Shown here piece after piece: positions 17,314 to 36,463 of a DNA stretch of 64,000 bases. Origin of the DNA: Falsochrobactrum tianjinense (lineage in GTDB: Bacteria; Pseudomonadota; Alphaproteobacteria; Rhizobiales; Rhizobiaceae); contig NZ_JAHRVA010000002.1 in the NCBI RefSeq assembly GCF_019100495.1, positions 62,001 to 126,000 on the forward strand, written 5' to 3'. Position 1 is the first letter of the stretch, and every line of letters begins with the position of its first letter. The position numbers and the translations under genes were made by a program. The notes beneath the pieces are model-generated. The model did not search any database and was not told the DNA's origin. It worked only from the letters and a program-made list of their open reading frames with translations.

Positions 17314-18252
17314 TCAGGCTTCGACAAGGGCTTTCGCGGTGCGCTCATCGGTGATGAGACCGTAGAGGCGTCCGCTTTTAAGAACTGCGCGAATAGCTTC
17401 CACTTTGGATACCCCACCAGCAAGACCGATGATGCGGCTCATATCGGCATTTTCGACGGAGGCGGCGATGGTGCGCGCGGTAAGGCCGGTTTCCAGCGAG
17501 CGACCCTCGGCATCGAAGAAGTGGCCGAGCATCTCACCGACGCCGCCCAGGTCAGCGATTTCCTCGACTTCCGCAAGCTGGATCACGCCGGACGTGACGA
17601 GTTGCGCTTGCCCATCGACTGTGCCGATACCGACGATCTTCAATTCCGCGCGGCAGCCCATTTCGAATATGCTGGTGACGCCCTTTTGCGCGAGCAGCAC
17701 TTCGCGATCTTCCGCTGTATTGGCAAAGAACGGAACTGGCATGACATAGGCAGGCATGCTGGTTTTCTCGGCAATACGGTGCATCACGTCATGGGGATTG
17801 GCGGCGAAGTTTCGCGTCAGGCCACCGAGCAACGAGACGAATTGCAGGTCTTGCGTGCTGACGCGGGGCATATGTTTGACCGCCGCTGAAAGCGTACGGC
17901 CATGGCCAAGGCCGATCACTTCGTGATCCCCATGCTCGATCTCACGGCGAAGGAATTCGGCCCCTGCATTACCAAGTGCAACCAGCGGCAATCCCTCTTC
18001 ACCAAGATCAGGCGCCACTTCACAATACTCGAGCTGATAAAGCTCGCCGAGCCGGTTTTCGAGGTCGATACATTCGGTGATGTCGCCGTCGATCGTCACT
18101 TTGACCGCGCCATCGGCAACCGCCTTGGCGATGAGGCGATGCGCCTTCACCGAAGGCAACCCTAAACGTTTGGCCACTGCGGATTGGGTCATGCCGGCTA
18201 CGAAATGCAGCCAGGCAGCACGAAGGGCAAGGGAATCGTCGGGGTCCGCCAT
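17314..18252 (-). CDS. eryD: Erythritol operon repressor EryD
   Basis: A 312-residue SorC/DeoR-like regulator. The N-terminal helix-turn-helix (MTQSAVAKRLGLPSVKAHRL) is at about residues 20-39, and the rest is the sugar-binding effector domain with the GHGRTLSAAVKHMP and QLVTSGVIQLAEVEEI segments. In Brucella, EryD represses the eryABCD operon and erythritol relieves repression (established). It begins 23 bases after eryC with GGAAG as ribosome site. The reading frame is intact across the eryC-eryD junction, the area deleted in vaccine strain S19. Confidence 0.93.
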   Translation of the reverse strand: MADPDDSLALRAAWLHFVAGMTQSAVAKRLGLPSVKAHRLIAKAVADGAVKVTIDGDITECIDLENRLGELYQLEYCEVAPDLGEEGLPLVALGNAGAEFLRREIEHGDHEVIGLGHGRTLSAAVKHMPRVSTQDLQFVSLLGGLTRNFAANPHDVMHRIAEKTSMPAYVMPVPFFANTAEDREVLLAQKGVTSIFEMGCRAELKIVGIGTVDGQAQLVTSGVIQLAEVEEIADLGGVGEMLGHFFDAEGRSLETGLTARTIAASVENADMSRIIGLAGGVSKVEAIRAVLKSGRLYGLITDERTAKALVEA

Positions 18253-18275: not shown

Positions 18276-19208
18276 TTAAACTTTCAAATCTGCAACGCCG
18301 GTGTCGATATGCGGAGCCCAGAAAGCCACACTTTCGGCAATATGGGGAATGACTTCGCGGTCGTTCGGTTCGCGTTCTTTGAACGAAAGCTCAAGGCAGA
18401 TCTCATTGTCCCGTGCGCCACCTTCGGCGAGGGCCTTCAGAAGCGGTTCCGGCTGGATGCGGCCCTTGGCATTGAACTCCGCCGTGAACGGGCGATGACC
18501 GCCCTTGTCCATCAGGCTTTGTTTGATATGGATGATCGGCGATACTTTCGGCACGGTGCGCGCCCAGGCATAAGGATCGAAATCAGCCGGATTGGAAGAG
18601 GTCACATCGCCATGGTCGATATCGGCCATCATCCACATGGGAATGGCCATACTGGCGGCGGTGAGGCGATCTTGAAGCTTCATGCATTCGACAATCGTTT
18701 CGCCGAATTCGCGCCCGATGCTCATCGGCTCCCAGAAGACATATTCAAGACCTGCGCCTGCGGCGTGTTCCGCTACTTCTGCCCAGCAATCGACCGCGAT
18801 CTTGATGAGTTCTTCCCGGCGCGCGGGATCGTCAAAATCCTTATAGGTGAAGATCGCAAACTGCGTACCCACCGACTTGCCGCCTAGATCACCGATGATA
18901 TCGGCAAAAGTCTTGAACCAGTCGACGTAATAGCGGCGCACGTCGCGGTCGGGGTGGCCAAAATGGTTGAGACGGCCATAAGGACCGGTCATGCCAGAGG
19001 TCACGCGAACGCCGGTGCGCTGCAGCGCCTTGTCCATATCACGGGTGAGGCGGCGAATGGTCGAAGCCTGCCAGCTCGGATTGATGAATTCATGCGTGAG
19101 CTGAAGATCGCGTAAACGCAGGTCGCGCGCCACAGTTTTGATCAAATCGCCCGGCTCTGCAAAGCGGTTGACCAGCGGATTGGTGTTGAGCGAAAGCGTC
19201 AGAGCCAT
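18276..19208 (-). CDS. eryC: EryC, D-erythrulose-1-phosphate 3-epimerase
   Basis: A 310-residue TIM-barrel protein of the sugar-isomerase superfamily. In Brucella it converts D-erythrulose 1-phosphate to L-erythrulose 1-phosphate, the third erythritol step. Visible acid and histidine clusters include LEYVFWEPMSIGREFGE, MADIDHGDVTSS and IHIKQSLMDKGGH. The start at 19208 (MALTLSLN) has GAGGA six bases upstream and lies 7 bases after the eryB stop; an upstream in-frame start at 19253 would run into eryB. The C-terminus (ELSFKEREPND) carries the last glutamate expected in these barrels. Confidence 0.92.
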   Translation of the reverse strand: MALTLSLNTNPLVNRFAEPGDLIKTVARDLRLRDLQLTHEFINPSWQASTIRRLTRDMDKALQRTGVRVTSGMTGPYGRLNHFGHPDRDVRRYYVDWFKTFADIIGDLGGKSVGTQFAIFTYKDFDDPARREELIKIAVDCWAEVAEHAAGAGLEYVFWEPMSIGREFGETIVECMKLQDRLTAASMAIPMWMMADIDHGDVTSSNPADFDPYAWARTVPKVSPIIHIKQSLMDKGGHRPFTAEFNAKGRIQPEPLLKALAEGGARDNEICLELSFKEREPNDREVIPHIAESVAFWAPHIDTGVADLKV

Positions 19209-19215
19209 GTCGTCC

Positions 19216-20736
19216 TCAGGCAGAAATCTTGTTGGTTTCGAACCATTGCGCAAAGGCAGTGCGTTCGGCTTCGGTCAGGTGCAGGTAATGTTTGGTACGG
19301 CGATAGAGAATGTCTTCCGCCGTTTTCGCCCATTCCTTGGCCACCAGATAGCGCACTTCGGCTTCGTAGAAATTTCCGCCGAAATGACGGCCCAGCTCTT
19401 CGAGGTTTTGCGCTGCGCCGATTACATCTTTCGTTCTTGCGCCATAGAGGCGGCCATAATGATGGACGAGCGTGCGCGGCATCCACGGATAGGTGTCGCG
19501 CAAGGCGTTGGCGAAGGTTTCGTAATCGGCATTGGGGATTTCCCCGCCTGGAAGCGGTGCGCCATGCGTCCAGTCATCACCCATCTTCGGGAAGATATGC
19601 TTCAGGCGATGCATGCCGCGCTCCGCCAATTCGCGGAACGTGGTAATCTTGCCGCCGAAGACATTGAGCAGCGGTGCATCGTTGGTTTCATCGAGGTCGA
19701 AAACGTAATCACGGGTCACGGCTGAAGGATTGCCCTTACCGTCATCGAACAGCGGACGCACGCCGGAGAAGGAATGCAGCACGTCTTCGCGGCGCAGCTT
19801 TTCCTTGAAATAGCGGTTCACGGCGGTTAGCAGATATTCGATTTCCTTCTCGTCTGCGGCAACGTCTTCCGCACGGCCGTCATAGGCAATGTCGGTGGTG
19901 CCGATCAGTGCCTTGTCCCCTTCATAGGGGTTGATGAAGATCACGCGCTTGTCGTGGTTCTGGACGAGATAGGCGTTCGATCCCGACCAGAACTTGGGCA
20001 CGATGATATGGCTGCCCTTGACGAGACGCACATTGCGCGACGAGTTCGATCCGGCCACATTGGTGATGACATCCGTGACCCATGGTCCGGCGCAATTAAC
20101 GATGCAGCGTGCGCGGAACGTGCTGGTTTCGCCCGTATCGCGGTTCTTGGTTTCCACGATCCAGCTGCCTTTTTCGCCCATTTTTTCACGACGCGCGGAG
20201 ACGACGGGCGTGCGGGTCAGGATCGTCGCGCCCTTTTCGGCCGCGCCGACCGCATTGAGGGCCACGAGGCGGGCGTCGTCCACCCAGCAGTCAGAATATT
20301 CGAAGCCTCGTGTGTACTGGTCGAGGATCGGGGTGCCTTCCGGGTCGCGCTTGAGATCAAGCGTTCGGGTTCCGGGCAACTTCTTGCGACCGCCAAGATG
20401 GTCGTAGAGAAACAGACCAAGCCGCACCAGCCAGGCCGGGCGATCCTGCGGGCTGTGCGGCAGAACGAAACGCATCGGCCAGATGATGTGCGGGGCGGCG
20501 TTCAGAAGCACCTCGCGCTCGATCAGCGCCTCGCGCACCAGGCGAAATTCGTAATATTCGAGATAGCGCAGACCGCCATGCACCAGCTTGCCGGAACGAG
20601 ACGAAGTGCCTTGCGCCAGATCGTCCTTTTCGGCCATCACGACCTTGAGACCGCGTCCAGCTGCATCGCGGGCCACGCCTGCGCCGTTAATGCCGCCGCC
20701 AATTACAAACAGATCGCAGGTTTCCGGTTCAGCCAT
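19216..20736 (-). CDS. eryB: EryB, D-erythritol-1-phosphate dehydrogenase
   Basis: A 506-residue FAD-dependent dehydrogenase related to aerobic glycerol-3-phosphate dehydrogenase GlpD. The dinucleotide-binding motif VIGGGINGAGVARDAAGRG is at about residues 10-28, and GTSSRSGKLVHGGLRYLE at about 43-60 is the GlpD signature. It oxidises D-erythritol 1-phosphate to D-erythrulose 1-phosphate and should pass electrons to the membrane quinone pool. The ATG at 20736 has AAGGAG 8 bases upstream; the frame's earlier start at 20763 is not supported. It lies between eryA and eryC in the operon. Confidence 0.93.
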   Translation of the reverse strand: MAEPETCDLFVIGGGINGAGVARDAAGRGLKVVMAEKDDLAQGTSSRSGKLVHGGLRYLEYYEFRLVREALIEREVLLNAAPHIIWPMRFVLPHSPQDRPAWLVRLGLFLYDHLGGRKKLPGTRTLDLKRDPEGTPILDQYTRGFEYSDCWVDDARLVALNAVGAAEKGATILTRTPVVSARREKMGEKGSWIVETKNRDTGETSTFRARCIVNCAGPWVTDVITNVAGSNSSRNVRLVKGSHIIVPKFWSGSNAYLVQNHDKRVIFINPYEGDKALIGTTDIAYDGRAEDVAADEKEIEYLLTAVNRYFKEKLRREDVLHSFSGVRPLFDDGKGNPSAVTRDYVFDLDETNDAPLLNVFGGKITTFRELAERGMHRLKHIFPKMGDDWTHGAPLPGGEIPNADYETFANALRDTYPWMPRTLVHHYGRLYGARTKDVIGAAQNLEELGRHFGGNFYEAEVRYLVAKEWAKTAEDILYRRTKHYLHLTEAERTAFAQWFETNKISA

Positions 20737-20771
20737 TTCATGCTCCTTCGGATGCAATCGCATCCCATAGT

Positions 20772-22352
20772 CTATATGCGGGCTAACTTGTCCCAGATCG
20801 GCGTCAGCGCCAGCCGGGCTTCGCGATAGGCAACGAAGAGTTCTTCATAGTGCTTTGCGCGCGCTTCATCCGGCGCTTCGCCGGTGCCGAGCAATGGCTT
20901 GACCCATTCGGCGATGCAGTCATCCATGCCCGGATAAGTACCGATGGCGACAGCGGCCATCATGGCAGCACCTGCCGCCCCAGCCTCTTCGCGGGCCGAA
21001 ACACGCACCGGCGCATTGACGGCGGCTGCAAGCGTGCTGCGCAGGGCCTTCGAGCGCGCCGCACCACCGGTAATGCGCAATTCAGCAGGCATTTCACCCA
21101 TGGCCGCATAACAATCGCGCGTCGCCATACCGAGGCCTTCGACGACCGAACGCACCAGTTCCGGGAACCGATCGCGGCTGGAAAGTCCGGCGAAGCCTGC
21201 GCGTGCGTAGGCATTGACGAAGGGGCCGCGCTCGCCTGCTTCCGAAATATAAGGATGATAGAGGATCGTGCCGGGGCGGCTGGCATTGAACCAGTCATCG
21301 AGGCGGGGTATGAGATCGCTCAGGGAGACGGGTTTCTCCGGCGTCGATATAAGATCGGCAGCGACCTGCAATATCCAGTCGATATTGATCGTCGCGCCCA
21401 TATTGGTCTGGACCTGCGTAACGATGCCGGGAATGGGCAGCGCGATGACGTAGCCCGTGCCATCCTTATTCAGGTGAATATCCGCCACGGGCTTGGCGCG
21501 CATATGCACGCCCGTCGAGCCGATGGTCGAACATCCGGCACCTGCCGTGCCGCCACGCACGCCGGCGCCGAGTGCCGTCATGGCCATGTCCACATAGCCG
21601 AGGCTCACCGGCGTTCCGGCCTTGAGGCCGGTTGCAGCCGCCGCTTCGGGCGATAGAGGATGCTGGACTTCTGTGCCGTCGATGATTTCGGGCAAGAGTC
21701 TGCGGCGCGTTTGCAGGCCGAGCGCTTCGATGACCACATCGTCATACTGGCGATTGCGGAAATTGCCGAAGGTAAAACTTGCTTCCGAAGGGTCTGTGGC
21801 GCGGACGCCAGTGAGATTGAGGTACAGCCAATCCTTACAATGAAGCGCGACTTCGGCATTGTCGAGAAGTTCCGGCGCAAATCTGTCCATATGCGCCATC
21901 TGCGAACCCTGCTGGCAGGTATTGAGTCCGGTGCCGGTCGCCTCAAAACGTGCGCGATTCATCGGTTCGGCAGCAAGCCGTGTGACGGTTTCCGCCGCTC
22001 GGGCGTCAAGCCATATCCATGCATCACCGACGGGCTTGTTATCCTTGCCCACCAGCCAGGTACCGTCGCCCTGGCCGGTAACCGCTACGGCTGCCGTGCG
22101 CTCGGCAAGTCCCGGCATTTTATCGCCAAGATCGCGCAGTGCGTTCGCACAATCTTCCCAGGTCTGGGAAAGCGATTGGGTGACAGCGCCATGTTCGCCG
22201 GTTTCATATTTATTGCGGACGGCTGCCGATTCCAGTTGCCGACCTTCAAGGTTGAATGCAACTGCCTTGACGACAGACGTGCCGGCGTCGATCCCGATGA
22301 TTATATCACCTTTACCATGCATGACGGAGATACGCTTTCCCACAGTGCTCAT
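20772..22352 (-). CDS. eryA: Erythritol kinase EryA
   Basis: A FGGY-family carbohydrate kinase that phosphorylates erythritol to D-erythritol 1-phosphate, the first step. The ATP-binding phosphate-1 motif IIGIDAGTSVVKAVAFN is at about residues 18-34, and the adenosine region ITGGAARSKALRSTL is near 421. It is the promoter-proximal gene of eryABCD and is divergent from the ABC transporter operon across a 505-base regulatory gap. The start is uncertain: ATG 22352 gives 526 residues and ATG 22322 gives 516, and neither has a clear ribosome site. Confidence 0.93.
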   Translation of the reverse strand: MSTVGKRISVMHGKGDIIIGIDAGTSVVKAVAFNLEGRQLESAAVRNKYETGEHGAVTQSLSQTWEDCANALRDLGDKMPGLAERTAAVAVTGQGDGTWLVGKDNKPVGDAWIWLDARAAETVTRLAAEPMNRARFEATGTGLNTCQQGSQMAHMDRFAPELLDNAEVALHCKDWLYLNLTGVRATDPSEASFTFGNFRNRQYDDVVIEALGLQTRRRLLPEIIDGTEVQHPLSPEAAAATGLKAGTPVSLGYVDMAMTALGAGVRGGTAGAGCSTIGSTGVHMRAKPVADIHLNKDGTGYVIALPIPGIVTQVQTNMGATINIDWILQVAADLISTPEKPVSLSDLIPRLDDWFNASRPGTILYHPYISEAGERGPFVNAYARAGFAGLSSRDRFPELVRSVVEGLGMATRDCYAAMGEMPAELRITGGAARSKALRSTLAAAVNAPVRVSAREEAGAAGAAMMAAVAIGTYPGMDDCIAEWVKPLLGTGEAPDEARAKHYEELFVAYREARLALTPIWDKLARI

Positions 22353-22857
22353 TCACGGACAACTGGATTTCCGCGACGAAATATGCCGCTCGCGACGCCT
22401 ATTTTAACGAAAACGGGCTATGCATATGATTGAGATAACATAAGCTTTCGAATGTGTCTGTAAAATTTTTGACTTACAGTATTTTTTTTCACAATGGGGT
22501 GGCGCAGATAAATTCGCCATCAGTAATTTGACCCGGCGCTATCTATTTTGGACTGCTCGAGCAAAACTCTAAAACCATAATGTGGTATAATATACTGTTA
22601 TTAAATAATAAAGTATACTGTTTGGGTGAGGTGCTCTGTCTTTGCCTGCTCATAGGCAGGTTTGCCCTGGCCCGCTTTTGCGTAGAGGATTTCGCTACTT
22701 CAATGTGGATTTCCAGATGGAGGTTAATGAAAATCGCCCTGTTATGAAAACATATGATTGACAGATATTAGTGTTTATAACATCATTATTGAAGTTGATA
22801 ACACGCCGCTATCATAGCATATGGCGCGGCAGCAGAAATTGCTCAAGGCGTTTGATT
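22353..22857. promoter_or_regulatory. Divergent promoter region of eryA and the transporter operon
   Basis: This 505-base, AT-rich gap has no convincing gene. It carries a 9-bp direct repeat TATACTGTT (22591-22599 and 22614-22622, 23 bases start to start, about two helical turns), flanking an imperfect TTATTAAATAATAA dyad. Further right, GTTATGAAAACATATG (around 22740) and TTTATAACATCATTATTG (around 22773) are AT-rich sequences with TGTTAT-like cores. The direct repeat is the best candidate for the EryD operator. Exact promoters are not assigned. Confidence 0.6.
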
Positions 22858-23511
22858 ATGAGTATACAAGCTGATCAAGTTTCGCAGAAGCCCGCCAGAA
22901 ACAATCGCTCTGTTTTATGGAGTGTGATTGCTGCGGTAGTGGTTATTGGTGCGATCGGATTTGATACAACAGTGGTGAGGATCGGTTCCGAGGCCGATGT
23001 GCGTCAGCAGGTTTTCTCGCCTGAAGCCTATGGTGCTGAAGAGTTTCCGAAAGTCAAAGCGGATGTCGAAAGGCGCGCCGTCGATGCGGTCGAGGTGGGA
23101 ACTGCGGTTGCGGCCGACAAGGGCGCCGCTGGAAAGAAATATGGCGTAGGTGACGTCAATCCGGTCATTCCAGTCAAGTTTACCGGTGTCGTTGAAGAGC
23201 GCAAGTCCAATTACAATATCGTCAAGGTCGACGGTTTCCCCGAGGGTATGACGATCCGCGTCCAAACCGGCCCGGCTGTCAACGGCACGGATCTGCGTGA
23301 TGCCACAGGCACCATCGAATTTGGCCAGTTCAAGAACCAGATCGAATATCAGAACGCCGGTTCCGCGCTCAATAATGAGATGAAAAAGCAGATACTGGAA
23401 GGTGTTCCCGTTGATAATCTCGTCGGACAGACGGTTTCGGTTGTCGGTGTTTTCAAGCTCGTCAATCCGAAAAACTGGCTCGTTACGCCAGTGGGATTTG
23501 AAGTCAAATGA
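22858..23511 (+). CDS. DUF2291-family membrane-anchored protein of the polyol ABC operon
   Basis: A 217-residue protein with one N-terminal transmembrane helix (VLWSVIAAVVVIGAIGF, about residues 20-36) and a periplasmic remainder containing VIPVKFTGVVEERKSNYN and a small beta-rich fold. It matches the DUF2291 family, whose genes typically precede ribose-type sugar ABC transporter genes; the biochemical role is unknown. The start at 22858 is chosen because the open frame upstream (to 22771) is basic and unlike the family. Its stop overlaps the ATPase start by four bases, so the two are translationally coupled. Confidence 0.8.
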   Translation: MSIQADQVSQKPARNNRSVLWSVIAAVVVIGAIGFDTTVVRIGSEADVRQQVFSPEAYGAEEFPKVKADVERRAVDAVEVGTAVAADKGAAGKKYGVGDVNPVIPVKFTGVVEERKSNYNIVKVDGFPEGMTIRVQTGPAVNGTDLRDATGTIEFGQFKNQIEYQNAGSALNNEMKKQILEGVPVDNLVGQTVSVVGVFKLVNPKNWLVTPVGFEVK

Positions 23512-25052
23512 ATCCGGAAAATAAAATCGAAGGCAGGCACGGCGAGGTCGTTCTGGCCGCGCAGAATATCGCCAAGTCCTATGGCCGGGTTCATGCGCTC
23601 AAGGGCGTGAATTTCGAGATCAGGCGCGGGCAGGTCACGACGCTGTTCGGCGAAAACGGCGCTGGCAAATCGACGCTGATGAAGGTGCTGTCGGGCGTGA
23701 TCCAGCCGACCTCCGGCACGATTCTTCTCGATGGCGAGCCGGTGGTTTTCAGTTCGTCGTCCGATGCGCGCGATCGCGGAATTTCGATCATCCACCAGGA
23801 ATTGAGCCTCGCGCCAAACCTGAATGTACGCGATAATGTCTTCATGGGGCGTGAAATCCGCACGCCGACAGGTGTAAATTTTGCTGAAGAAGAACGCCTG
23901 ACTCGTGCGCTTCTCGAAGAGCTGGAAGAGGACATAGATCCGCTGACCCTGGTCGAGGATTTGCGGCTGGGCCAGCAGCAGATCGTTGAAATCGCTCGCG
24001 CACTTTCGGTCAATTCGCGCATTCTTATTATGGACGAGCCGACTTCCGCACTCAGCGCAACGGAAGTGGAAGTGCTGTTCAAGGTTATTCGCGACCTGAC
24101 ATCGCGCGGCGTTGCCATTGTCTATATTTCGCATCATCTTGAAGAAGCCTTGCAGATCACTGATCATGCGGTGGTGCTGCGAGACGGTGCCATGACAGCT
24201 TATTCTCCGCGCGCTGATATCGATTTGGAATGGATCGTACGCAATATGGTTGGCGAGAATTTCGATCTTGGCTCGCCGCCGACCGGCTATGAATGGGGCG
24301 ACGTTGCGCTTTCCGTGACAGATCTCACGGTTCCCGATCCGTCGGGTGCCGGTTTCGCGGTTGTTGACCGCATGTCGCTCGATGTACGCGCAGGCGAAGT
24401 CGTCTGCATCTATGGTCTGATGGGAGCTGGGCGCACGGAATTGCTTGAAGCGGTCGCAGGCCGGCTCAAGACGACTGAGGGCCAGATATTGCTCAATGGA
24501 CAGGATGTGTCTGGTTTGACCATTGCGCAGCGTATCGACAGAGGATTGGTTTTGGTTCCTGAAGACCGCCAACGCGATGGCCTCGTTCAGACCATGACGG
24601 TGGGCGGAAACCTTTCCCTTGCCAGTATCAGCGCTATCATCAGGGGATTTTTCACCTCGAAGAAGAGAGAAAAAGACCTGATCGGGCAGGCCATCCAGAA
24701 GGTTCACATCAAGACGGATGGCGGCGAGGCGACAATTGGCTCGCTTTCGGGCGGTAATCAGCAAAAGGTCGTCATTGGCAAGATGCTGGCGACAGAGCCG
24801 GAAGTGGTCCTGTTGGATGAACCGAGCCGCGGCATCGACATTGGCGCAAAGGCGGAAGTTTTCAAGCTGCTGGCCGAGAAGGCCCGGCAGGGGCTGGCGG
24901 TTGTCTACACCACCTCGGAAGTCGGCGAATGCCTGAGCATCGCCCATCGTATCATCGTTATGCACCGCGGACGCGTTTCGGCCGAATTCGGCTCGGACGT
25001 TTCCAAGGAGAAGATCATGGCCGCCTCGGGCGAGGCCATGGTCAGTCACTGA
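23508..25052 (+). CDS. eryE: Ribose-type sugar ABC transporter ATPase, probable erythritol importer
   Basis: A 514-residue duplicated ATPase (RbsA type). The first half has Walker A GENGAGKST (about residues 44-52), signature LRLGQQQIVEIARAL and Walker B ILIMDEPTSAL. The second half has a degenerate P-loop region GLMGAGRTEL and signature SLSGGNQQKVVIGKML with VVLLDEPSRGID. It overlaps the DUF2291 gene by ATGA. By its divergence from eryA and by rhizobial erythritol loci, it probably powers erythritol uptake; the symbol follows rhizobial usage and is tentative. Confidence 0.85.
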   Translation: MNPENKIEGRHGEVVLAAQNIAKSYGRVHALKGVNFEIRRGQVTTLFGENGAGKSTLMKVLSGVIQPTSGTILLDGEPVVFSSSSDARDRGISIIHQELSLAPNLNVRDNVFMGREIRTPTGVNFAEEERLTRALLEELEEDIDPLTLVEDLRLGQQQIVEIARALSVNSRILIMDEPTSALSATEVEVLFKVIRDLTSRGVAIVYISHHLEEALQITDHAVVLRDGAMTAYSPRADIDLEWIVRNMVGENFDLGSPPTGYEWGDVALSVTDLTVPDPSGAGFAVVDRMSLDVRAGEVVCIYGLMGAGRTELLEAVAGRLKTTEGQILLNGQDVSGLTIAQRIDRGLVLVPEDRQRDGLVQTMTVGGNLSLASISAIIRGFFTSKKREKDLIGQAIQKVHIKTDGGEATIGSLSGGNQQKVVIGKMLATEPEVVLLDEPSRGIDIGAKAEVFKLLAEKARQGLAVVYTTSEVGECLSIAHRIIVMHRGRVSAEFGSDVSKEKIMAASGEAMVSH

Positions 25053-25075
25053 TATAGTTATGGAGCACTGATAGA

Positions 25076-26116
25076 ATGTCAGTCACAAGCACCAAAGAGA
25101 AGGCTGCGGCCCCCGAGGGAGCGAAGCGTAAAACCAGCATCGTGCAATTGCTGCTCGAAGGCCGTGCGTTCTTTGCGCTTATTGCAATCATCGCCGTCTT
25201 CTCGTTCCTTTCACCTTATTACTTCACTGTCGGCAATTTCCTCATCATGTCGTCGCATGTGGCCATTTTCGGCCTGCTGGCGATCGGTATGCTGCTGGTG
25301 ATCCTCAATGGGGGCATCGACCTTTCCGTGGGTTCGACGCTGGGGCTTGCGGGCGTGTTTGCAGGCTTTCTGATGCAGGGCGTGACGCTCTCGCAATTTG
25401 ACATCATTCTTTATTTCCCGGTCTGGGCGGTCGTGCTCATCACCTGCGCGCTGGGCGCTTTCGTGGGCGCGGTGAATGGCGTGCTGATTGCCTATCTGCG
25501 CGTTCCCGCCTTTGTGGCGACGCTTGGCGTGCTTTACTGCGCGCGCGGTGTTGCGCTGCTGATGACCAACGGTCTAACCTACAATAACCTTGGCGGTCGT
25601 CCCGAACTTGGCAATACCGGCTTCGACTGGCTCGGCTTCAACCGGCTTTTTGGCGTGCCGATCGGTGTGCTGGTTCTTGCCGTTCTCGCAATCATCTTCG
25701 CAATTGTTTTGAACCGGACCGCATTTGGCCGCTGGCTCTATGCATCGGGCGGCAATGAACGGGCGGCGGAACTTTCGGGCGTTCCGGTCAAGCGCGTCAA
25801 GGTTTCCGTCTATGTCATTTCTGGCGTCTGTGCGGCAATTGCCGGGCTGGTCCTGTCGTCACAGCTGACCTCGGCTGGCCCCACGGCGGGCAATACCTAT
25901 GAACTCACCGCAATCGCCGCGGTCGTTATCGGCGGCGCTGCCCTGACGGGCGGGCGCGGCACAATTCTGGGTACGCTGCTTGGCGCTTTCGTGATCGGCT
26001 TTCTTTCTGACGGCCTCGTCATCATCGGCGTATCGTCTTACTGGCAGACCGTCTTTACCGGCGCGGTGATCGTGCTCGCGGTTCTGCTCAACAGCATTCA
26101 ATATGCCCGGCGCTAG
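25076..26116 (+). CDS. eryF: Ribose-type sugar ABC transporter permease
   Basis: A 346-residue inner-membrane permease of the RbsC family. It has about eight to ten hydrophobic helices, the conserved GMLLVILNGGIDLSVGSTLG segment (about residues 67-86) and GRWLYASGGNERAAELSGV (about 218-236), both typical of CUT2 permeases. It lies 23 bases after the ATPase. A GC-rich stem-loop follows before the binding-protein gene. Erythritol or another polyol is the likely substrate by location; the symbol is tentative. Confidence 0.85.
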   Translation: MSVTSTKEKAAAPEGAKRKTSIVQLLLEGRAFFALIAIIAVFSFLSPYYFTVGNFLIMSSHVAIFGLLAIGMLLVILNGGIDLSVGSTLGLAGVFAGFLMQGVTLSQFDIILYFPVWAVVLITCALGAFVGAVNGVLIAYLRVPAFVATLGVLYCARGVALLMTNGLTYNNLGGRPELGNTGFDWLGFNRLFGVPIGVLVLAVLAIIFAIVLNRTAFGRWLYASGGNERAAELSGVPVKRVKVSVYVISGVCAAIAGLVLSSQLTSAGPTAGNTYELTAIAAVVIGGAALTGGRGTILGTLLGAFVIGFLSDGLVIIGVSSYWQTVFTGAVIVLAVLLNSIQYARR

Positions 26117-26123
26117 TATCGCG

Positions 26124-26153
26124 CGGCCTCGCCCAGTGTTCTGGACGGGGCCG
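26124..26153 (+). terminator. Stem-loop between permease and binding-protein genes
   Basis: CGGCCTCGCCCAG (26124-26136) pairs with CTGGACGGGGCCG (26141-26153) at 11 of 13 positions, loop TGTT, followed by TTT. It may attenuate read-through or mark the 5' side of a separately transcribed binding-protein message. Confidence 0.5.
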
Positions 26154-26261
26154 TTTCGGGCGTAGCGAAAACTTTCCAAGATGGCGATGGACTCGCCCCC
26201 TGGAAATAATACCGCCGGGAAACCGGCATAATGGCAACGCTAATTGTTACGGGAGAGAGAC

Positions 26262-27209
26262 ATGTTTAAAAAAGGAATGCGGGTTCTGTTTGCTGCCGCA
26301 GCAGCACTGCCGCTCATCGCCAGCTCGGCCTGGGCCGAAGGTCTGATGACGATCATCGTCAATGATCCTTCCAATCCTTACTGGTATACGGAAGGTGAAA
26401 TCGCCAAGAAGACCGCCGAAAGCCTCGGCTATTCGGCAGTTGTTGGGGGTCATAAGGGCGACACCAACACCGAAAGCAACCTGATCGACACCGCCATCAC
26501 CAACAAATCGGTGGCCATCATTCTCGATCCGGCCAATGCTGATGGTTCGGTTGGTGCGGTCAAGCGTGCAATCGCCGCCAATATCCCGGTTTTCCTCGTG
26601 AATGCCGAGATCAATCAGGAAGGTCTGGCCAAGGCGCAGCTCGTTTCCAATAACGCGCAGGGCGCAGCCCTTGGTGCTACGCAATGGGTGGAAAGCGTTG
26701 GTGAAGAAGGCAAATATGTCGAACTCTTCGGATCGCCTTCCGACAATAATGCCGCTACGCGCTCGAACGGCTATGAAACCGTTCTTTCGCAATATCCTGA
26801 TCTGGTGAAGGCTGGTCAGGACGTCGCCAACTGGGACCGTACCCAGGGTCACGACAAGATGCAGGCTCTGCTTCAGGCCAATCCCGACATTATCGGCGTG
26901 ATCTCCGGCAATGACGAAATGGCATTGGGCGCAATTGCTGCCCTCAAGAAGGCCGGCAAACTCGATCAGGTCAAGGTTGGCGGTTTCGACGGTTCGCCAG
27001 ATGCTGTTGCTGCCATCAAGGCCGGTGAACTTCAGTACACCGTGCTTCAGCCGGTTGCGGTTTTCTCGGAAGCTGCTGTCAAGCAAGCAGATAACTTCAT
27101 CAAGACTGGTGAAACCGGTGTGGATCAGGAAAAGCAGCTTTTCGACTGCATCCTGATCACCAAGGACAATGTCGATAAATACACTTCGCCATTCGTTCTT
27201 GAGCAGTAA
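26262..27209 (+). CDS. eryG: Periplasmic sugar-binding protein (RbsB type), probable polyol binder
   Basis: A 315-residue periplasmic binding protein. A Sec signal peptide (KKGMRVLFAAAAALPLIASS, cleavage likely after AWA near residue 24) precedes a two-lobed Peripla_BP_4 domain with NDPSNPYWYTE and VISGNDEMALGAIAAL. The ATG at 26262 has GGGAGAGAG directly upstream. It should deliver substrate to the permease/ATPase pair encoded just before it. An intact hairpin lies 3' of the gene. Erythritol is the likely ligand by location, but a different polyol fitting the downstream kinase is equally possible. Confidence 0.87.
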   Translation: MFKKGMRVLFAAAAALPLIASSAWAEGLMTIIVNDPSNPYWYTEGEIAKKTAESLGYSAVVGGHKGDTNTESNLIDTAITNKSVAIILDPANADGSVGAVKRAIAANIPVFLVNAEINQEGLAKAQLVSNNAQGAALGATQWVESVGEEGKYVELFGSPSDNNAATRSNGYETVLSQYPDLVKAGQDVANWDRTQGHDKMQALLQANPDIIGVISGNDEMALGAIAALKKAGKLDQVKVGGFDGSPDAVAAIKAGELQYTVLQPVAVFSEAAVKQADNFIKTGETGVDQEKQLFDCILITKDNVDKYTSPFVLEQ

Positions 27210-27223
27210 GACCTCGCACGAAC

Positions 27224-27249
27224 GGGACGCAGGTTTCTATCCGCGTCCC
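27224..27249 (+). terminator. Stem-loop 3' of RbsB-type gene
   Basis: GGGACGC (27224-27230) and GCGTCCC (27243-27249) form a perfect 7-bp stem, extended by an inner GG/CC pair. It lies 15 bases after the binding-protein stop and only a few bases before the DeoR gene. A role in stabilising the binding-protein mRNA is inferred. Confidence 0.55.
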
Positions 27250-27253
27250 ATCG

Positions 27254-28120
27254 GTGCATGAAGCGGTAAGAATGGCAGTGAGCAGCAAAGCAGCTATTGA
27301 AAACCTTATGGCGGAGCAGGTTCCGAACGACAGTCGACATGCGCGTCAACTGGTTCGCCGCCAGAAAATCGCCGAGACCGTGATGTCCGAAGGCTCAATG
27401 CGCATTGAGGACATTACCGAACGCTTCGGCATCAGCCTCATGACCGCACATCGGGACGTCGATGAGCTGGTCAGCCGTGGTCTTTGCCGCAAGACGCGCG
27501 GCATCGTTTCCGCTGCGCCGACAAGCCTTATCGAGGCGAGCGACATTTATCGTATCACGCGTCAGGCAGACGAGAAAAAGCTGATTGCGGCGGCGGCGAT
27601 GCAGTTCGTCGAGCCGGGACAGGCGATTTTTTTCGACGATTCTACGACCGTTCTTCAGATGGTCCCGCATCTTCCGGCCAAGGCGCCGTTGACTGTCATC
27701 ACCAATTCGCTCACCCTGATGAATGAAACCCGCGACATGACCGATATCACGCTGTTGGGTCTGGGCGGGCAGCTTTATAATTGGTGCAATGCTTTCGTGG
27801 GTGGAATGACGACCAACGAGATTCGTCGTTTGCGTGCCGATGTGGCTTTCATTTCGATTGCAGCGATTACCGACGATCTTCTTTTCCATCAATCTCCAGA
27901 AATGGTCGAGACCAAGCGCGCTATGCTTGAAAGTGCCGCCAAGCGTGTGCTGCTGGCCGATCACACCAAGTTCGAGCGCCGGGCACTGCATGGATTCGGA
28001 GCATTGAGCGATTTCGACGTGGTTATCGTCGACGAACGAACGTCTTTCGCGCATCTCGACCGCATGCAGGCGCAAGGTATTAATGTCGTCGTCGCGCGTC
28101 CGGCCGCGACCGACACGTAA
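27254..28120 (+). CDS. DeoR-family regulator of the second polyol module
   Basis: A 288-residue DeoR repressor. The helix-turn-helix is at about residues 51-70 (MRIEDITERFGISLMTAHRD), followed by the phosphosugar-sensing domain (PLTVITNSLTLMNETRDM, then LLGLGGQLYNWCNAFVGG). A shorter start at ATG 27272 is also possible. It is transcribed with the transporter genes and sits before a kinase and a flavoprotein dehydrogenase, so it probably senses their phosphorylated intermediate. It is clearly a different protein from the DeoR gene at 16436-17200. Confidence 0.87.
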   Translation: MHEAVRMAVSSKAAIENLMAEQVPNDSRHARQLVRRQKIAETVMSEGSMRIEDITERFGISLMTAHRDVDELVSRGLCRKTRGIVSAAPTSLIEASDIYRITRQADEKKLIAAAAMQFVEPGQAIFFDDSTTVLQMVPHLPAKAPLTVITNSLTLMNETRDMTDITLLGLGGQLYNWCNAFVGGMTTNEIRRLRADVAFISIAAITDDLLFHQSPEMVETKRAMLESAAKRVLLADHTKFERRALHGFGALSDFDVVIVDERTSFAHLDRMQAQGINVVVARPAATDT

Positions 28121-28171
28121 ACAAGAGCGGAGGCTATGCGGCCTTTGCCTGCATTTCAGGAATGATGATTC

Positions 28172-29686
28172 ATGCCTTGCCTACTGGGAATCGATAGCGG
28201 ACTGACCGTAACCAAAGCCGTATTGTTCGATATTGACGGCACGCCGCTTTCTATTGCGCGCCGCCGCGTGACCCAGTCTTTTCCGCAACCGCGCCACGTC
28301 GAGCGTGATATGGACGAATTCTGGAACGCAACCGCGGATGCGATCGCCGAGGCAATCGCGAAAAGCGGACGTCCAGCATCCGATATTTTGGCAATTGCCA
28401 CAACGGCGCACGGTGATGGCATTTATATGCTCGACAAGGATCGTCGTCCGCTTGGGCCGGGCATATTGTCGCTCGACAGCCGAGCGCTGGATGTCGCCGG
28501 ACGCTGGCTTGGCGGGCCGGTGGCGAAAAAATCCATCTCCATTACCGGGCAGGCTCCGCACGCCTCGGCCCCGTCGGCCATCCTTGCATGGATAAAAGAA
28601 AACGAGCCGGAGCGCTATGCGCAGATCGGGCATGTTCTGGCTGCAAAGGACTGGCTGCGCTTTTGCCTGACTGGCGAGGTGGGAACCGACCGCACCGAAG
28701 CCTCGACGTCCTTTACCGACGTCAATACACAGGGTTATTCCAAAGATGCGCTCGCCCTGTTCGGTCTGGAGGAGCTTTGGGGGGCACTGCCGCCCATGGC
28801 GCGCTCCGACGAAATCGTCGGTGATGTTTCGGAAGCCTGTGCGGAACGCACCGGCCTTGTCGCGGGTACGCCTGTTGTCGCCGGTCTGCATGATGTGACG
28901 GCCTCTGCCCTGGGTGTCGGCGGTCTTGGGATCGGTACCGTCGCAGTGGTTGCAGGCACCTATTCGATCAATGAAACGCTTTCCTCCGAGCCGCGCGTCG
29001 ATGAAAGCTGGTTCTGCCGCAATGGCATTGCGCCCGGCGAATGGAACAATATGTCCATTTCGCCTGCCTCAACCGCGAATTACGACTGGTTCCTCGATAA
29101 GCTTTGTGCAGCGGAGCGTCGCGAGGCCGAGCAGTCGGGTCGGTCTATCCACGATATGCTGCGCACGGAAATCGACGCGGCGCTGGCGAAGCCCTCGACG
29201 GCTATGTTCCATCCCTATCTTTTCGGTTCGCCTTACGGCGCTATGGCGAGCGGTTCGTTTTTCGGCCTGCGAGGCTGGCAGGAGCGTGGCGACATGCTGC
29301 GCGCCGTCTGGGAGGGCATCGCCTTTAATCATCGCATTCACGTCGATCATCTTAAAGGCGGGTTCGCCATTTCCAGCGCGCGCTTGACAGGGGGGGTATC
29401 GCGCAGCCCGGCCTTTGCGCAGATGTTCGCCAATGTGCTTGGCATGCCTGTCACGGTGACGGATACGGATGAAGCCGCTGCCTGGGGGGCTGCCCTTTGT
29501 GCAGGCAAGGGCGCAGGGGTTTTCGGCGATGTTTATAGCGATCCGCGCGATCTTGATGCCATCGCAATAACCTATAGTCCCGATATGGAGCGCAGTTCGC
29601 AATATGAAAAGCGCTATGCGCTGTTCTGTGAGATGGCGTCGGCGCTTGGCCCTCTTTGGCCGAAGATCGAAGCTCTGAGCGACTGA
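28172..29686 (+). CDS. FGGY-family carbohydrate kinase
   Basis: A 504-residue FGGY kinase (L-xylulose/3-keto-L-gulonate kinase-like). The phosphate-1 motif LLGIDSGLTVTKAVLFD is at about residues 4-20; substrate-loop segments ATTAHGDGIYMLDKDRRP and GLHDVTASALGVGG and the adenosine motif LTGGVSRSPAFAQMF follow. It resembles EryA in fold and length but is clearly divergent. It begins 51 bases after the DeoR gene and is followed 33 bases later by a GlpD-like enzyme, mirroring eryA-eryB. A polyol or ketose is the likely substrate; which one cannot be told. Confidence 0.85.
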   Translation: MPCLLGIDSGLTVTKAVLFDIDGTPLSIARRRVTQSFPQPRHVERDMDEFWNATADAIAEAIAKSGRPASDILAIATTAHGDGIYMLDKDRRPLGPGILSLDSRALDVAGRWLGGPVAKKSISITGQAPHASAPSAILAWIKENEPERYAQIGHVLAAKDWLRFCLTGEVGTDRTEASTSFTDVNTQGYSKDALALFGLEELWGALPPMARSDEIVGDVSEACAERTGLVAGTPVVAGLHDVTASALGVGGLGIGTVAVVAGTYSINETLSSEPRVDESWFCRNGIAPGEWNNMSISPASTANYDWFLDKLCAAERREAEQSGRSIHDMLRTEIDAALAKPSTAMFHPYLFGSPYGAMASGSFFGLRGWQERGDMLRAVWEGIAFNHRIHVDHLKGGFAISSARLTGGVSRSPAFAQMFANVLGMPVTVTDTDEAAAWGAALCAGKGAGVFGDVYSDPRDLDAIAITYSPDMERSSQYEKRYALFCEMASALGPLWPKIEALSD

Positions 29687-29719
29687 AATGACGCGCAATA
29701 AAGATGTAAAGACAGTGAA

Positions 29720-31441
29720 ATGAACGAGCCCGAGAACACTCAATATAACCGGATCAAGCAACTGGAAGCGGAGGGTGTCGACGTCCTCATTCTAGGCGCA
29801 GGCGTCAATGGCGCAGGGTTGTTTCGCGATCTGAGCGAGCAGGGCGTCAATTGCCTTATCGTCGACAAGGCGGATTTCGGTTCCGGCACTAGCGCTGCGC
29901 CGTCGCGCCTGATCCATGGCGGGCTGAAATACCTGGAGACAGGCGAATTCGGGCTGATCGCGCAATCGACGCTGGAGCGCAATCTTCTGTTGAAAAATGC
30001 GCCTCATAACGTCCAGCCCCTGCCGACATTCATTCCGGTTTTTTCGTGGACGCGCGGCGTCTGGGCCTCCTTACGCACGCTGATGGGCTCCACTACCGCG
30101 CCGCGCAGCCGGGGTGCCGTGCTCATCAAGATCGGCCTTGCGCTCTATGATTATTTTGGCGCGCGTGAGCGTGTCATGCCGCGCCATCGGTTTTTGTTCA
30201 AAAATACCGCGACGAAGGAAATGCCTTATATTACCCCGGCGATCGTCGCAGGCGGTATCTATCATGATGCCAAGGTCAGCCAGCCGGAGCGTCTCGTCTA
30301 TGAACTGGTGAGCGACGGCCTCGCCGCAAACCCCAAGAGCGCTGCCAGCAATTTCATGGCACTGGTTTCCGCCAAAGACGGTGCTGTGAGCTTCGAAGGG
30401 CCGGACGGGGCGGCATTTACGGTGACACCAAAACTGGTCGTCAATGCCGCCGGACCGTGGATCGATCATGTGAATGAAGCGCTTGGCAAGCCGACGAAGA
30501 TGATCGGCGGCACCAAAGGATCGCATATTCTCATCGATCATCCGGAACTGGTGAAGAGCCTCAATGGCCGTATGATCTATTTCGAAGCGGATGATGGGCG
30601 TATCTGTCTTGTTTATGACTATCACGGTCTGGCGCTTGTCGGTTCGACCGATATTCCATCAGACGACCCCGATAATGTGCGTGCCGAAGAACCCGAGATC
30701 GATTATTTTATCGACAGCTTGCGCTCGTTATTGCCGAAGCTGCAATTCGACCGCAAGCAAATCGTCTATGCCTATAGTGGCATTCGTCCGCTGCCTGCGT
30801 CGAATGCTTCCGAACCGGGTCTTATCAGCCGCGATCACTCTGCGCCCATCATCGAGCCGGATCGTGAGCGGCCTTTTGCCATCATCTCGCTTGTCGGCGG
30901 CAAGTGGACGACCTTTCGCGGCTTTGCCGAGGAAGTGGCGGATACGGTGCTTTCGCGTCTGGGGCGTGATCGCCTTAAATCTACCCGCAACCTCTCCATC
31001 GGCGGAGGCAAGGATTATCCGGCGGGTGTTCAGGCGCACGCCGCATGGGTGGGAAAATACGCCATGGAGAGTGGACTGTCTTCTGCGCGTGTAGAAACAT
31101 TATTGGCGCGCTACGGCACCACTGCTTCCGCCATTATCGAACAGGAGACACGAGTCGGCACTGTTTTTCTGCCGGAAACAGATACGATCAGTGCAGCGGA
31201 AATCGCCTGGATCGCGCGCAACGAACTGGTAGTGCATCTGGCTGATATCGTGCTGCGGCGTACGACGCTTGCAATCGACGGTGCGCTTTCGACCAGCAAT
31301 TTGCAGGCAATAGCAGATATTGCGGCGCGGGAACTGGGATGGAGCGACGCGCGCAAGATGCAGGAGATCGAAACGGTCACTACCGAGCTTGCGCGCCGCC
31401 ATGGCGTTATCCTGATCAGCCAGCCCGCCAAACGGCGCTGA
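29720..31441 (+). CDS. GlpD-like FAD-dependent polyol-phosphate dehydrogenase
   Basis: A 573-residue flavoprotein. FAD-binding motif ILGAGVNGAGLFRDLSEQG is at about residues 25-43, and GTSAAPSRLIHGGLKYLE at about 57-74 is the GlpD signature; GGTKGSHILIDHP and SLVGGKWTTFRGFAEE follow. The C-terminal ~130 residues form the GlpD C-terminal domain. It may be a glycerol-3-phosphate dehydrogenase or a dedicated dehydrogenase for the product of the adjacent kinase. The kinase/GlpD-like pairing parallels eryA/eryB, which favours the second. It ends 13 bases before the convergent ngg gene. Confidence 0.87.
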   Translation: MNEPENTQYNRIKQLEAEGVDVLILGAGVNGAGLFRDLSEQGVNCLIVDKADFGSGTSAAPSRLIHGGLKYLETGEFGLIAQSTLERNLLLKNAPHNVQPLPTFIPVFSWTRGVWASLRTLMGSTTAPRSRGAVLIKIGLALYDYFGARERVMPRHRFLFKNTATKEMPYITPAIVAGGIYHDAKVSQPERLVYELVSDGLAANPKSAASNFMALVSAKDGAVSFEGPDGAAFTVTPKLVVNAAGPWIDHVNEALGKPTKMIGGTKGSHILIDHPELVKSLNGRMIYFEADDGRICLVYDYHGLALVGSTDIPSDDPDNVRAEEPEIDYFIDSLRSLLPKLQFDRKQIVYAYSGIRPLPASNASEPGLISRDHSAPIIEPDRERPFAIISLVGGKWTTFRGFAEEVADTVLSRLGRDRLKSTRNLSIGGGKDYPAGVQAHAAWVGKYAMESGLSSARVETLLARYGTTASAIIEQETRVGTVFLPETDTISAAEIAWIARNELVVHLADIVLRRTTLAIDGALSTSNLQAIADIAARELGWSDARKMQEIETVTTELARRHGVILISQPAKRR

Positions 31442-33281: not shown

Positions 33282-33282
33282 G

Positions 33283-35058: not shown

Positions 35059-35096
35059 AAAAAGGGTTGAAACCTCCATTGTTGTCATAAATTAAA

Positions 35097-36396: not shown

Positions 36397-36463
36397 ACCG
36401 GCAATAGATCGCAAATCAGAACTTCTGCGTCAACCTCGCGCCCGTCGTTTTTCCTGTCGCCCC

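What the first reader, a model, noticed from the sequence alone, without database searches (positions are those of the whole stretch)
22858..31441. A second kinase/GlpD-like polyol module is wired to the presumed erythritol importer
The operon divergent from eryA encodes a DUF2291 protein, an RbsABC-type transporter, its own DeoR regulator, an FGGY kinase and a GlpD-like flavoprotein. The kinase-dehydrogenase pair mirrors eryA-eryB but is clearly divergent in sequence. Either erythritol import is bundled with a second, separate polyol pathway, or one transporter serves two polyols. No isomerases for a second pathway lie in this operon, so it would have to borrow EryC, TpiA2 and RpiB or use others. 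This is the strongest candidate here for an undescribed system.
Basis: partly seen in the sequence, partly recalled or inferred. Interest (0 to 1): 0.7.

Follow-up and report, generated by a model that had tools for sequence, protein, structure and literature searches.

The report
Second sugar-alcohol pathway beside erythritol genes
Next to the well-known genes for eating the sugar alcohol erythritol sits a conserved but apparently unstudied kinase-dehydrogenase pair that probably feeds a second four-carbon sugar alcohol, most likely L-threitol, into the last two steps of the same pathway.

Summary
An operon at 22858-31441 (+), divergent from eryA, encodes DUF2291, EryE, EryF, EryG, a DeoR regulator, an FGGY kinase (kin2) and a GlpD-like flavoprotein (glpD2). 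Kin2 and GlpD2 are about 30% identical to EryA/EryB, and the genome has a separate canonical GlpK and GlpD. The pair is no oddity of this genome: all 35 loci found with kin2 at >=49% identity have glpD2 downstream, and 34 of them carry EryG. Rhizobium 3841 has it. No paper passage that I saw discusses it. Three stand-alone operons holding the pair adjoin EryI (two) or an EryH-type isomerase (one), and two of those three genomes lack EryC. In one other genus the same importer sits with the gene types of the mycobacterial L-threitol route. Best reading: kin2 and GlpD2 turn L-threitol into L-erythrulose-1-phosphate, which enters at EryH/EryI and bypasses the epimerase EryC. That the route is four-carbon is well supported by gene context; that the substrate is L-threitol is inferred, with no assay. 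It is a new variant of a known kind of locus.

The parts
22462..22490 (-). eryO-like EryD operator beside the eryA promoter
   Evidence: AAAATTTT-N11-ATTTTTTTTC, same flanks as the reverse complement of the 29-bp eryO printed in PMC10190533; the block is largely conserved in the 12 Brucellaceae intergenic regions aligned, with changes in the T run in L003, L005 and L010
22774..22803 (+). direct repeat TTTATAACA-N12-TTGATAACA, putative operator of deoR2 in the promoter of the DUF2291 operon
   Evidence: present in 12 of 12 Brucellaceae aligned, with at most one mismatch in the second half; a pair with up to 1 mismatch per half in 8 of 28 loci scanned, at most 1 of 200 mononucleotide shuffles each; that DeoR2 binds it is inference
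22858..23511 (+). DUF2291 protein, first gene of the operon
   Evidence: PF10054, 155.8 bits
23508..25052 (+). eryE, CUT2-type ABC ATPase
   Evidence: 81% to R. johnstonii 3841 eryE
25076..26116 (+). eryF, permease
   Evidence: PF02653; 86% to 3841 eryF
26262..27209 (+). eryG, periplasmic binding protein
   Evidence: PF13407; nearest solved structures 5ibq/4ry0, named ribose-type binding proteins
27272..28120 (+). deoR2, the operon's own DeoR regulator (alternative GTG start at 27254)
   Evidence: PF00455 + PF08220; present >60% in 33 of 35 loci
28172..29686 (+). kin2, FGGY kinase, predicted L-threitol (tetritol) kinase
   Evidence: PF00370 + PF02782; family signature
29720..31441 (+). glpD2, GlpD-like flavoprotein, predicted L-threitol-1-phosphate dehydrogenase
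   Evidence: PF01266 + PF16901; K70 in 29 of 29
20772..22352 (-). eryA, erythritol kinase (divergent operon)
   Evidence: 74% to 3841 eryA
19216..20763 (-). eryB, erythritol-phosphate dehydrogenase
   Evidence: 84% to 3841 eryB
18276..19253 (-). eryC, D-erythrulose-1-phosphate 3-epimerase, predicted not to be needed by the second route
   Evidence: 84% to 3841 eryC; no match in G247 and G677 at E<=1e-20
17314..18252 (-). eryD, repressor of eryABCD
   Evidence: 69% to 3841 eryD
16436..17200 (-). eryR, DeoR regulator of the tpi-rpiB unit
   Evidence: 74% to 3841 eryR
15651..16421 (-). tpiA2/eryH, predicted shared isomerase (L-erythrulose-1-P to D-erythrulose-4-P)
   Evidence: separated from housekeeping Tpi with 100/100 support
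15168..15623 (-). rpiB/eryI, predicted shared D-erythrulose-4-phosphate isomerase
   Evidence: NF051858, 251.7 bits, cut-off 240

Best explanation
The operon is the second arm of a two-substrate tetritol locus. EryEFG imports erythritol and a second four-carbon polyol. Kin2 phosphorylates that polyol at a terminal carbon. GlpD2, keeping the GlpD/EryB stereochemistry, oxidises the carbon next to the phosphorylated one and passes electrons to the quinone pool. If the polyol is L-threitol, the product is L-erythrulose-1-phosphate (= D-3-tetrulose-4-phosphate), which is also what EryC makes in the erythritol arm. It then goes through TpiA2/EryH to D-erythrulose-4-phosphate and RpiB/EryI to D-erythrose-4-phosphate. 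Only two dedicated enzymes are needed and EryC is bypassed. DeoR2 is the likely local regulator. Shown: gene content, conservation, co-occurrence, isomerase pairing, and no EryC match in two stand-alone genomes. Inferred: substrate, stereochemistry, electron acceptor, regulation. My confidence is 0.75 that the route is a four-carbon one entering above EryH/EryI, and 0.5 that the substrate is L-threitol.
For: (1) Co-occurrence: kin2 in 18 of 397 order genomes and EryC in 26 of 397, both in 17. EryG >=70% in 23 of 392: all 15 that also have EryC have kin2. Nine EryC genomes lack kin2, and none of the nine is among the EryG hits. (2) Pairing with isomerases: kin2-glpD2-tpi-rpiB in one run in G264, G186 and G043, and tpi-rpiB-kin2-glpD2 in G080 and G115. 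(3) Stand-alone operons with other transporters: G677 (Pelagibius; divergent from the operon) and G050 (next to glpD2) carry an RpiB over the EryI cut-off (243.9 and 248.5; cut-off 240), and G247 carries an EryH-type TIM divergent from the operon (65%). G247 and G677 have no EryC match at E<=1e-20, while 12 of the 15 genomes tested have it at >=60%. (4) Shared signatures: GlpD2 K70 in 29 of 29 (3 stand-alone included) against R in 9 of 9 paralogues and 7 of 7 EryB/GlpD rows; 11 kin2 columns invariant in 29 of 29 and absent from 7 paralogues. The kin2 HGDG loop shares its G-D-G with the QGDG of 8 of 8 EryA rows shown. (5) In genus g100, 8 genomes have EryG >=80% but are among neither the EryC nor the kin2 hits. 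In the 5 of these 8 that I opened, EryEFG lies with a Zn-dehydrogenase, DhaK, DhaL and a TIM on the EryH side of the tree (HMMs run on L173 only). These are the gene types I recall for the M. smegmatis L-threitol route; passages of PMC10733421 give the reactions of EltD, LerK, LerI and DerI, and that EryC converts D- to L-erythrulose-1-P.
Against: I know of no assay, growth or structure data for kin2 or GlpD2. Independence from EryC rests on two genomes, of which G677 has no stated completeness; 17 of 18 kin2 genomes also have EryC. G247 and G677 also carry EryA-like genes (53% and 51%) with EryB-like neighbours in another locus, so they are not free of polyol kinases. G247 has no RpiB over the EryI cut-off (144.5 bits). 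The EryH-type TIM of G677 lies in a different, DhaK-containing cluster. Tree support uniting embedded and stand-alone GlpD2 is moderate (71/88); L034 and L149 sit on long branches, and in the kin2 tree L149 does not group with the rest. No rpiB was found in the five g100 stretches, and EltD/LerK also act on erythritol, so the g100 clusters point to L-threitol only through their LerI-like TIM. Geddes 2013 expects no further polyol from this locus type.
Confidence: 0.5

Rival explanations
1. The pair is a second erythritol route: kin2 phosphorylates the opposite prochiral end of erythritol and GlpD2, with reversed stereospecificity, gives L-erythrulose-1-phosphate directly, so EryC is not needed.
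For: Same isomerase pairing and EryC independence as the best reading; the transporter's known substrate is erythritol (passage of PMC2364660: eryF mutation in R. leguminosarum abolished erythritol uptake).
Against: Needs GlpD2 to reverse the stereochemistry of GlpD/EryB although the H, R and K motifs are kept; redundant with EryC-bearing loci in 17 of 18 genomes; that eryA, eryB or eryC mutants lose erythritol growth although the pair is present in Rhizobium is recalled, not checked.
Confidence: 0.15
2. The substrate is a pentitol, hexitol or other polyol, and the isomerase neighbours only reflect shared ancestry of the locus.
For: Among solved structures kin2 is nearest to LsrK (138 bits), and LyxK-type and similar enterobacterial kinases match at 31-34%; a sister GlpD-like/FGGY system lies with a class I aldolase that would split a longer ketose-1-phosphate (annotated in L089; L085).
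Against: The only aldolase seen next to the pair is the class II Fba of most Rhizobium loci, and Fba is tied to erythritol use in Brucella (PMC11508834, title and a figure legend). An R. leguminosarum erythritol cosmid did not restore adonitol or L-arabitol growth (PMC3599248; whether the cosmid carried the pair is not stated). Stand-alone operons adjoin EryI or EryH.
Confidence: 0.13
3. D-threitol route: kin2 makes D-threitol-4-phosphate and GlpD2 oxidises C2 to D-erythrulose-4-phosphate, which needs only EryI.
For: G677 and G050 carry only EryI next to the operon.
Against: GlpD and EryB act on the carbon next to the phosphorylated one (established chemistry, recalled); EryH-type genes lie next to the pair or its operon in G247, G264, G186, G043 and G084.
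Confidence: 0.08
4. The pair is an accessory glycerol kinase and glycerol-3-phosphate dehydrogenase.
For: GlpD2 matches GlpD models distantly (260 bits, cut-off 360).
Against: The genome has canonical GlpK and GlpD; kin2 scores 123 against a 590 cut-off for GlpK; kin2 has HGDG where the genome's GlpK has QRET.
Confidence: 0.03

Closest known systems
Rhizobium leguminosarum/Brucella-type erythritol locus (eryABCD, eryEFG, eryR-tpiA2-rpiB)
   Same: Same gene order; EryA/B/C/E/F/G 74-86% identical to R. johnstonii 3841, where the pair is also present (RL_RS33910, RL_RS33905).
   Different: The texts I saw (PMC3599248 parts 1-4; passages of PMC3522698, PMC2364660, PMC10190533) stop at eryEFG or deoR and do not treat the kinase/GlpD2 pair.
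Mycobacterium smegmatis L-threitol route (EltD, LerK, LerI, DerI)
   Same: Same predicted intermediates from L-erythrulose-1-phosphate on; the LerI and DerI reactions equal those of EryH and EryI.
   Different: That route oxidises first and then phosphorylates (LerK; DhaK type by recall); here an FGGY kinase would act first and a flavoprotein second.
Sinorhizobium meliloti mptABCDE-eryA-lalA-rbtBC locus
   Same: One importer serving erythritol plus other polyols (PMC3599248).
   Different: Different transporter family (Mpt); extra substrates adonitol and L-arabitol. No kin2-glpD2 was seen within the stretches opened around EryA of loci that I take to be Mpt-like (L145, L147, L148, L179, L180).
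SorC/aldo-keto reductase/GlpD-like/class I aldolase/FGGY kinase clusters of rhizobia and relatives
   Same: FGGY kinase with a GlpD-like oxidoreductase and a CUT2 transporter.
   Different: 38-45% identity, an aldolase in the two annotated examples, R instead of K at GlpD2 position 70.

Membership tests
FGGY carbohydrate kinase | FGGY_N and FGGY_C domains | tested here: met
   198.9 and 92.5 bits
Glycerol kinase, xylulokinase or AI-2 kinase equivalog | score over the NCBIfam cut-off | tested here: not met
   XylB 232/380, LsrK 177/528, GlpK 123/590
Erythritol kinase EryA | close sequence relationship | tested here: not met
   29% identity to the window's EryA; EryA is a distant outgroup row
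GlpD/GlpO flavoprotein superfamily | DAO and DAO_C domains | tested here: met
   119.7 and 76.5 bits
Glycerol-3-phosphate dehydrogenase GlpD (equivalog) | score over the NCBIfam cut-off | tested here: not met
   260 of 360 and 235 of 352
Erythritol locus of R. leguminosarum type | eryABCD divergent from DUF2291-eryEFG, with eryR-tpiA2-rpiB | tested here: met
EryI D-erythrulose-4-phosphate isomerase | NF051858 cut-off 240 | tested here: met
   window RpiB 251.7
L-threitol catabolic pathway | activity of kinase and dehydrogenase on L-threitol and its phosphate | not testable with these tools
   needs enzyme assays
M. smegmatis-type L-threitol route | polyol dehydrogenase plus DhaK-type kinase in the locus (definition recalled) | tested here: not met
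   absent from the seven-gene operon; present instead in the five genus g100 loci opened

The most novel reading that the evidence does not exclude
A phosphorylative L-threitol pathway with two unassigned activities, an FGGY L-threitol kinase and a quinone-linked L-threitol-1-phosphate dehydrogenase, is built into the erythritol locus of Brucellaceae and rhizobia. EryEFG is then a dual erythritol/L-threitol importer, and the two tetritols meet at L-erythrulose-1-phosphate, one through EryC and one without it.
Probability: 0.42. Interest if true: 0.66.

Novelty: new variant of a known kind. Interest (0 to 1): 0.56.

Why it matters
The erythritol locus is one of the best-studied catabolic loci of rhizobia and Brucellaceae, because it bears on nodulation competitiveness, rhizosphere growth and host tissue preference, yet two conserved genes of its transporter operon have no assigned role in what I could read. 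If they serve L-threitol, the 'erythritol' importer and regulators must be reread as a tetritol system. Two enzyme activities gain candidate genes, and a simple genetic prediction follows: the second substrate should need EryH and EryI but not EryC. This is directly testable in a laboratory Rhizobium strain.

Tried and rejected
Glycerol reading: set aside after finding a separate canonical GlpK and GlpD in the genome. Chance neighbourhood: rejected by kin2-glpD2 adjacency in 35 of 35 loci. Recent duplication of eryA-eryB: rejected, because EryB is a close GlpD relative (540 bits to 2qcu) while GlpD2 is a distant one (143 bits). Pentitol reading: lowered by the cosmid result in PMC3599248 and by the EryI/EryH pairing. 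A class-wide search (385 genomes) gave, besides the own genome, five kin2 relatives at 36-41% and added nothing. Structure prediction of EryG could not be obtained. Literature: 'threitol kinase' and 'threitol phosphate' occur in none of the 25 papers listed out of 87 holding at least one of four threitol terms (62 not listed). The inferred Rhizobium tags pRL120197 and pRL120198 (counted by me from eryF = pRL120201) were in no paper (the 2 papers found matched other tags).

Rows dropped: L123_EryB was a mislabelled GlpD2 row and was left out of the counts. G197 (truncated kin2/glpD2) was left out of the stand-alone set and of the trees.
Full report
WHAT IS THERE. The window is G000:C11:62001-126000 of a 3.50-Mb genome in 20 contigs. 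Shared gene order and 83-98% protein identity over fifteen genes, eryC through the downstream neighbours, make Falsochrobactrum shanghaiense (L003) the nearest named relative seen. The tool counts 34 other genomes as the same genus (unnamed); the named loci of similar identity (85-89% for kin2) bear the names Brucella, Ochrobactrum and Falsochrobactrum, or order names only. The operon at 22858-31441 is as described: DUF2291, eryE, eryF, eryG, deoR2, kin2, glpD2, all open, with gaps of 62, 51 and 33 bases between the last four genes. It diverges from eryA-eryB-eryC-eryD, followed by eryR-tpiA2-rpiB.

NOT GLYCEROL, NOT A RECENT COPY OF ERYAB. Kin2 is 29% identical to EryA and below every NCBIfam equivalog cut-off listed. 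GlpD2 is a distant GlpD (143 bits to 2qcu), whereas EryB is a close one (540 bits). The genome has a canonical GlpK and GlpD elsewhere.

CONSERVATION. The genome-contig scan kept the best 80 of 253 relatives, 79 distinct loci. Of the 35 with kin2 at >=49%, 35 have glpD2 downstream, 34 EryG >70%, 33 deoR2 >60%, 33 eryA and 33 eryB >60%. Of 34 other same-genus genomes, 31 carry kin2 at 83% or more (one, G783, in two pieces); G791, G793 and G808 lack it. On plasmids the family stops sharply: the 60 rows shown of 246 records fall at 64-74% or at 39% and below, with none between. Rhizobium johnstonii 3841 has the pair as RL_RS33910 and RL_RS33905. Shinella, Paracoccus sp. TOH without deoR2 and Rhizobium sp. 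K15/93 with eryR between kin2 and glpD2 have it too.

CO-OCCURRENCE. In 397 genomes of the order, kin2 (E<=1e-115) is in 18 and EryC (E<=1e-90, 58% identity or more) in 26; 17 have both and only G247 has kin2 without EryC. EryG (E<=1e-120, 70% or more) is in 23 of 392 (a slightly different draw; G777, a kin2 genome not listed there, shows EryG in its locus L152). All 15 EryG genomes with EryC have kin2. The nine EryC genomes without kin2 (G690, G029, G040, G068, G103, G172, G208, G228, G283) are not among the EryG hits, though I saw only for G690 that it was drawn. So the pair follows the EryEFG importer rather than the erythritol enzymes as such.

ISOMERASE PAIRING. In G264, G186 and G043, kin2-glpD2 runs straight into tpiA2-rpiB; in G080 and G115 the order is eryR-tpiA2-rpiB-kin2-glpD2; in G084 it is kin2-deoR-glpD2-eryR-tpiA2 with rpiB next on the other strand. 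Three stand-alone operons have other transporters and no eryABC in the stretch opened: G247, G050 and Pelagibius G677. G677 (divergent from the operon) and G050 (next to glpD2) carry an RpiB over the curated EryI cut-off (243.9 and 248.5; cut-off 240). G247 carries an EryH-type TIM divergent from the operon and only a sub-threshold RpiB elsewhere (144.5). EryC gives no match in G247 and G677 at E<=1e-20, is present at >=60% in 12 of the 15 genomes tested, and only a 27% match in G197. The TIMs of G247 and G677 fall with EryH, apart from housekeeping Tpi, with 100/100 support. Caveats: the completeness of G677 is not stated; its TIM lies in a different DhaK-type cluster; both G247 and G677 hold EryA-like kinases (53%, 51%) with EryB-like neighbours in another locus that I take to be Mpt-like; G050 has its own EryC in another locus.

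SAME ENZYME IN BOTH SETTINGS. GlpD2 of 26 embedded and 3 stand-alone loci share K70 (29 of 29), at the position of E. coli GlpD R54, where 9 of 9 aldolase-linked or other paralogues and 7 of 7 EryB/GlpD rows have R (the number 54 is counted by me from the alignment, its active-site role is recalled). Eleven kin2 columns (T78, D82, F181, H240, W280, R283, W291, P298, A299, S360, N386) are invariant in 29 of 29 and absent from 7 paralogues; T78, D82 and F181 are shared with the window's EryA. Kin2 rows have T(A/G)HGDG and EryA rows T(A/G)QGDG where the genome's GlpK has TNQRET. Tree support for uniting embedded and stand-alone GlpD2 is moderate (71/88). In the quick kin2 tree L149 (G050) falls outside.

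CHEMISTRY. Passages of PMC10733421 state that EryC converts D- into L-erythrulose-1-phosphate and that LerI and DerI carry L-erythrulose-1-phosphate to erythrose-4-phosphate. A figure legend of PMC11508834 lists L-erythritol-4-P, L-3-tetrulose-4-P, EryC as racemase, D-3-tetrulose-4-P, EryH and EryI. By Fischer projection (my derivation), L-3-tetrulose-4-P is D-erythrulose-1-P and D-3-tetrulose-4-P is L-erythrulose-1-P. sn-glycerol-3-P and L-erythritol-4-P have the same configuration at the oxidised carbon. The tetritol phosphate that keeps this configuration and yields L-erythrulose-1-P is L-threitol phosphate. L-threitol is thus the one tetritol for which an unchanged GlpD stereochemistry makes EryC unnecessary. 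This is the core of the inference and is untested.

AN INDEPENDENT POINTER FROM THE IMPORTER. Eight genomes of genus g100 have EryG at 80-83% and are among neither the EryC nor the kin2 hits (I did not see for each that it was drawn). I opened five of the eight. In 5 of 5, DUF2291-EryEFG lies beside a zinc-type dehydrogenase, DhaK, DhaL, a DeoR regulator, a chemoreceptor and a TIM that groups with EryH against housekeeping Tpi; SorC was found by the same query in four (not L176); none has eryA, eryB, eryC, kin2, glpD2 or rpiB in the stretch (HMM confirmation on L173 only). EryG of g100 sits among the erythritol-locus EryG rows and apart from the 47-51% paralogues (100/100). These gene types are those I recall for EltD, LerK and LerI of M. 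smegmatis. EltD and LerK take L-threitol to L-erythrulose-1-P and erythritol to D-erythrulose-4-P, so a LerI-type TIM is needed only for L-threitol. That makes L-threitol a likely cargo of this importer family.

REGULATION. Ba et al. (PMC10190533, passages) mapped the EryD operator between the -35 and -10 of a promoter in the eryE-eryA gap; an equivalent lies at 22462-22490 near eryA. A different conserved element, TTTATAACA-N12-TTGATAACA at 22774-22803, lies in the promoter region of the DUF2291 operon (12 of 12 Brucellaceae with at most one mismatch in the second half; 8 of 28 loci overall). In B. abortus eryEFG was about 2-fold induced by erythritol, and the following deoR 2.3-fold in one of two data sets (PMC3522698, passages); the gene tags after that deoR do not occur in the text.

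LITERATURE. PMC3599248 was read in parts 1 to 4 of 5 (its figures are not held). It expects no further polyol from this locus type and reports that an R. leguminosarum erythritol cosmid did not confer adonitol or L-arabitol growth. PMC11103875 (passages) names eryB, eryR, tpiA2 and rpiB2 as needed in the rhizosphere; kin2 and glpD2, but also eryA and eryC, are not named in the passage shown. PMC3245297 (passages) treats EryA among FGGY kinases and shows nothing on this pair. Searches. The primary papers of Yost 2006, Barbier 2014 and Huang 2015 were not seen; they are known from citations and recall.

VERDICT. The four-carbon assignment is well supported by context (0.75); L-threitol is the most likely substrate (0.5). 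It is a new variant of a known kind.

Noticed in passing
L172-L176 (unnamed genus g100): EryEFG-DUF2291 orthologues linked to a Zn-dehydrogenase, DhaK, DhaL, EryH/LerI-type TIM and a chemoreceptor, without eryABC in the stretch: a likely alphaproteobacterial L-threitol cluster of mycobacterial logic.
   Followed up: partly
L089 701-12140; also L085 786-13166; relatives in L088 and L153: A sister system: CUT2 transporter, SorC-type regulator, aldo-keto reductase, GlpD-like protein, aldolase, FGGY kinase and GMC oxidoreductase (annotated in L089 and L085); probably a longer polyol split by an aldolase.
   Followed up: partly
L001 16740-20922, also L005, L006, L010; L080 17309-22872; L144 9352-14184 onward: A paralogous transporter (about 50% to EryEFG; DUF2291 also present in L080 and L144); with a DhaK-family kinase and a phosphogluconate-dehydrogenase-C-domain protein in Shinella, and with an EryH-like TIM in G247. 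Substrate unknown.
   Followed up: no
G197 (L136): Kin2 and glpD2 survive only as short open frames (120 and 335 aa) and EryC gives only a 27% match, while eryR, tpiA2 and rpiB remain: apparent decay of the locus.
   Followed up: no
window 31455-36414 (-): Downstream neighbours look like an N-acetylglutaminylglutamine osmolyte cluster (GNAT/ATP-grasp protein, MCGICG-type amidotransferase, peptidase; names recalled, not tested); among L001-L035 they were matched next to the operon only in L003.
   Followed up: no
L020-L024, L026-L030, L032: In most Rhizobium loci and in Phyllobacterium the class II aldolase gene lies directly downstream of glpD2 in opposite orientation, whereas in the window it lies beside rpiB.
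   Followed up: no
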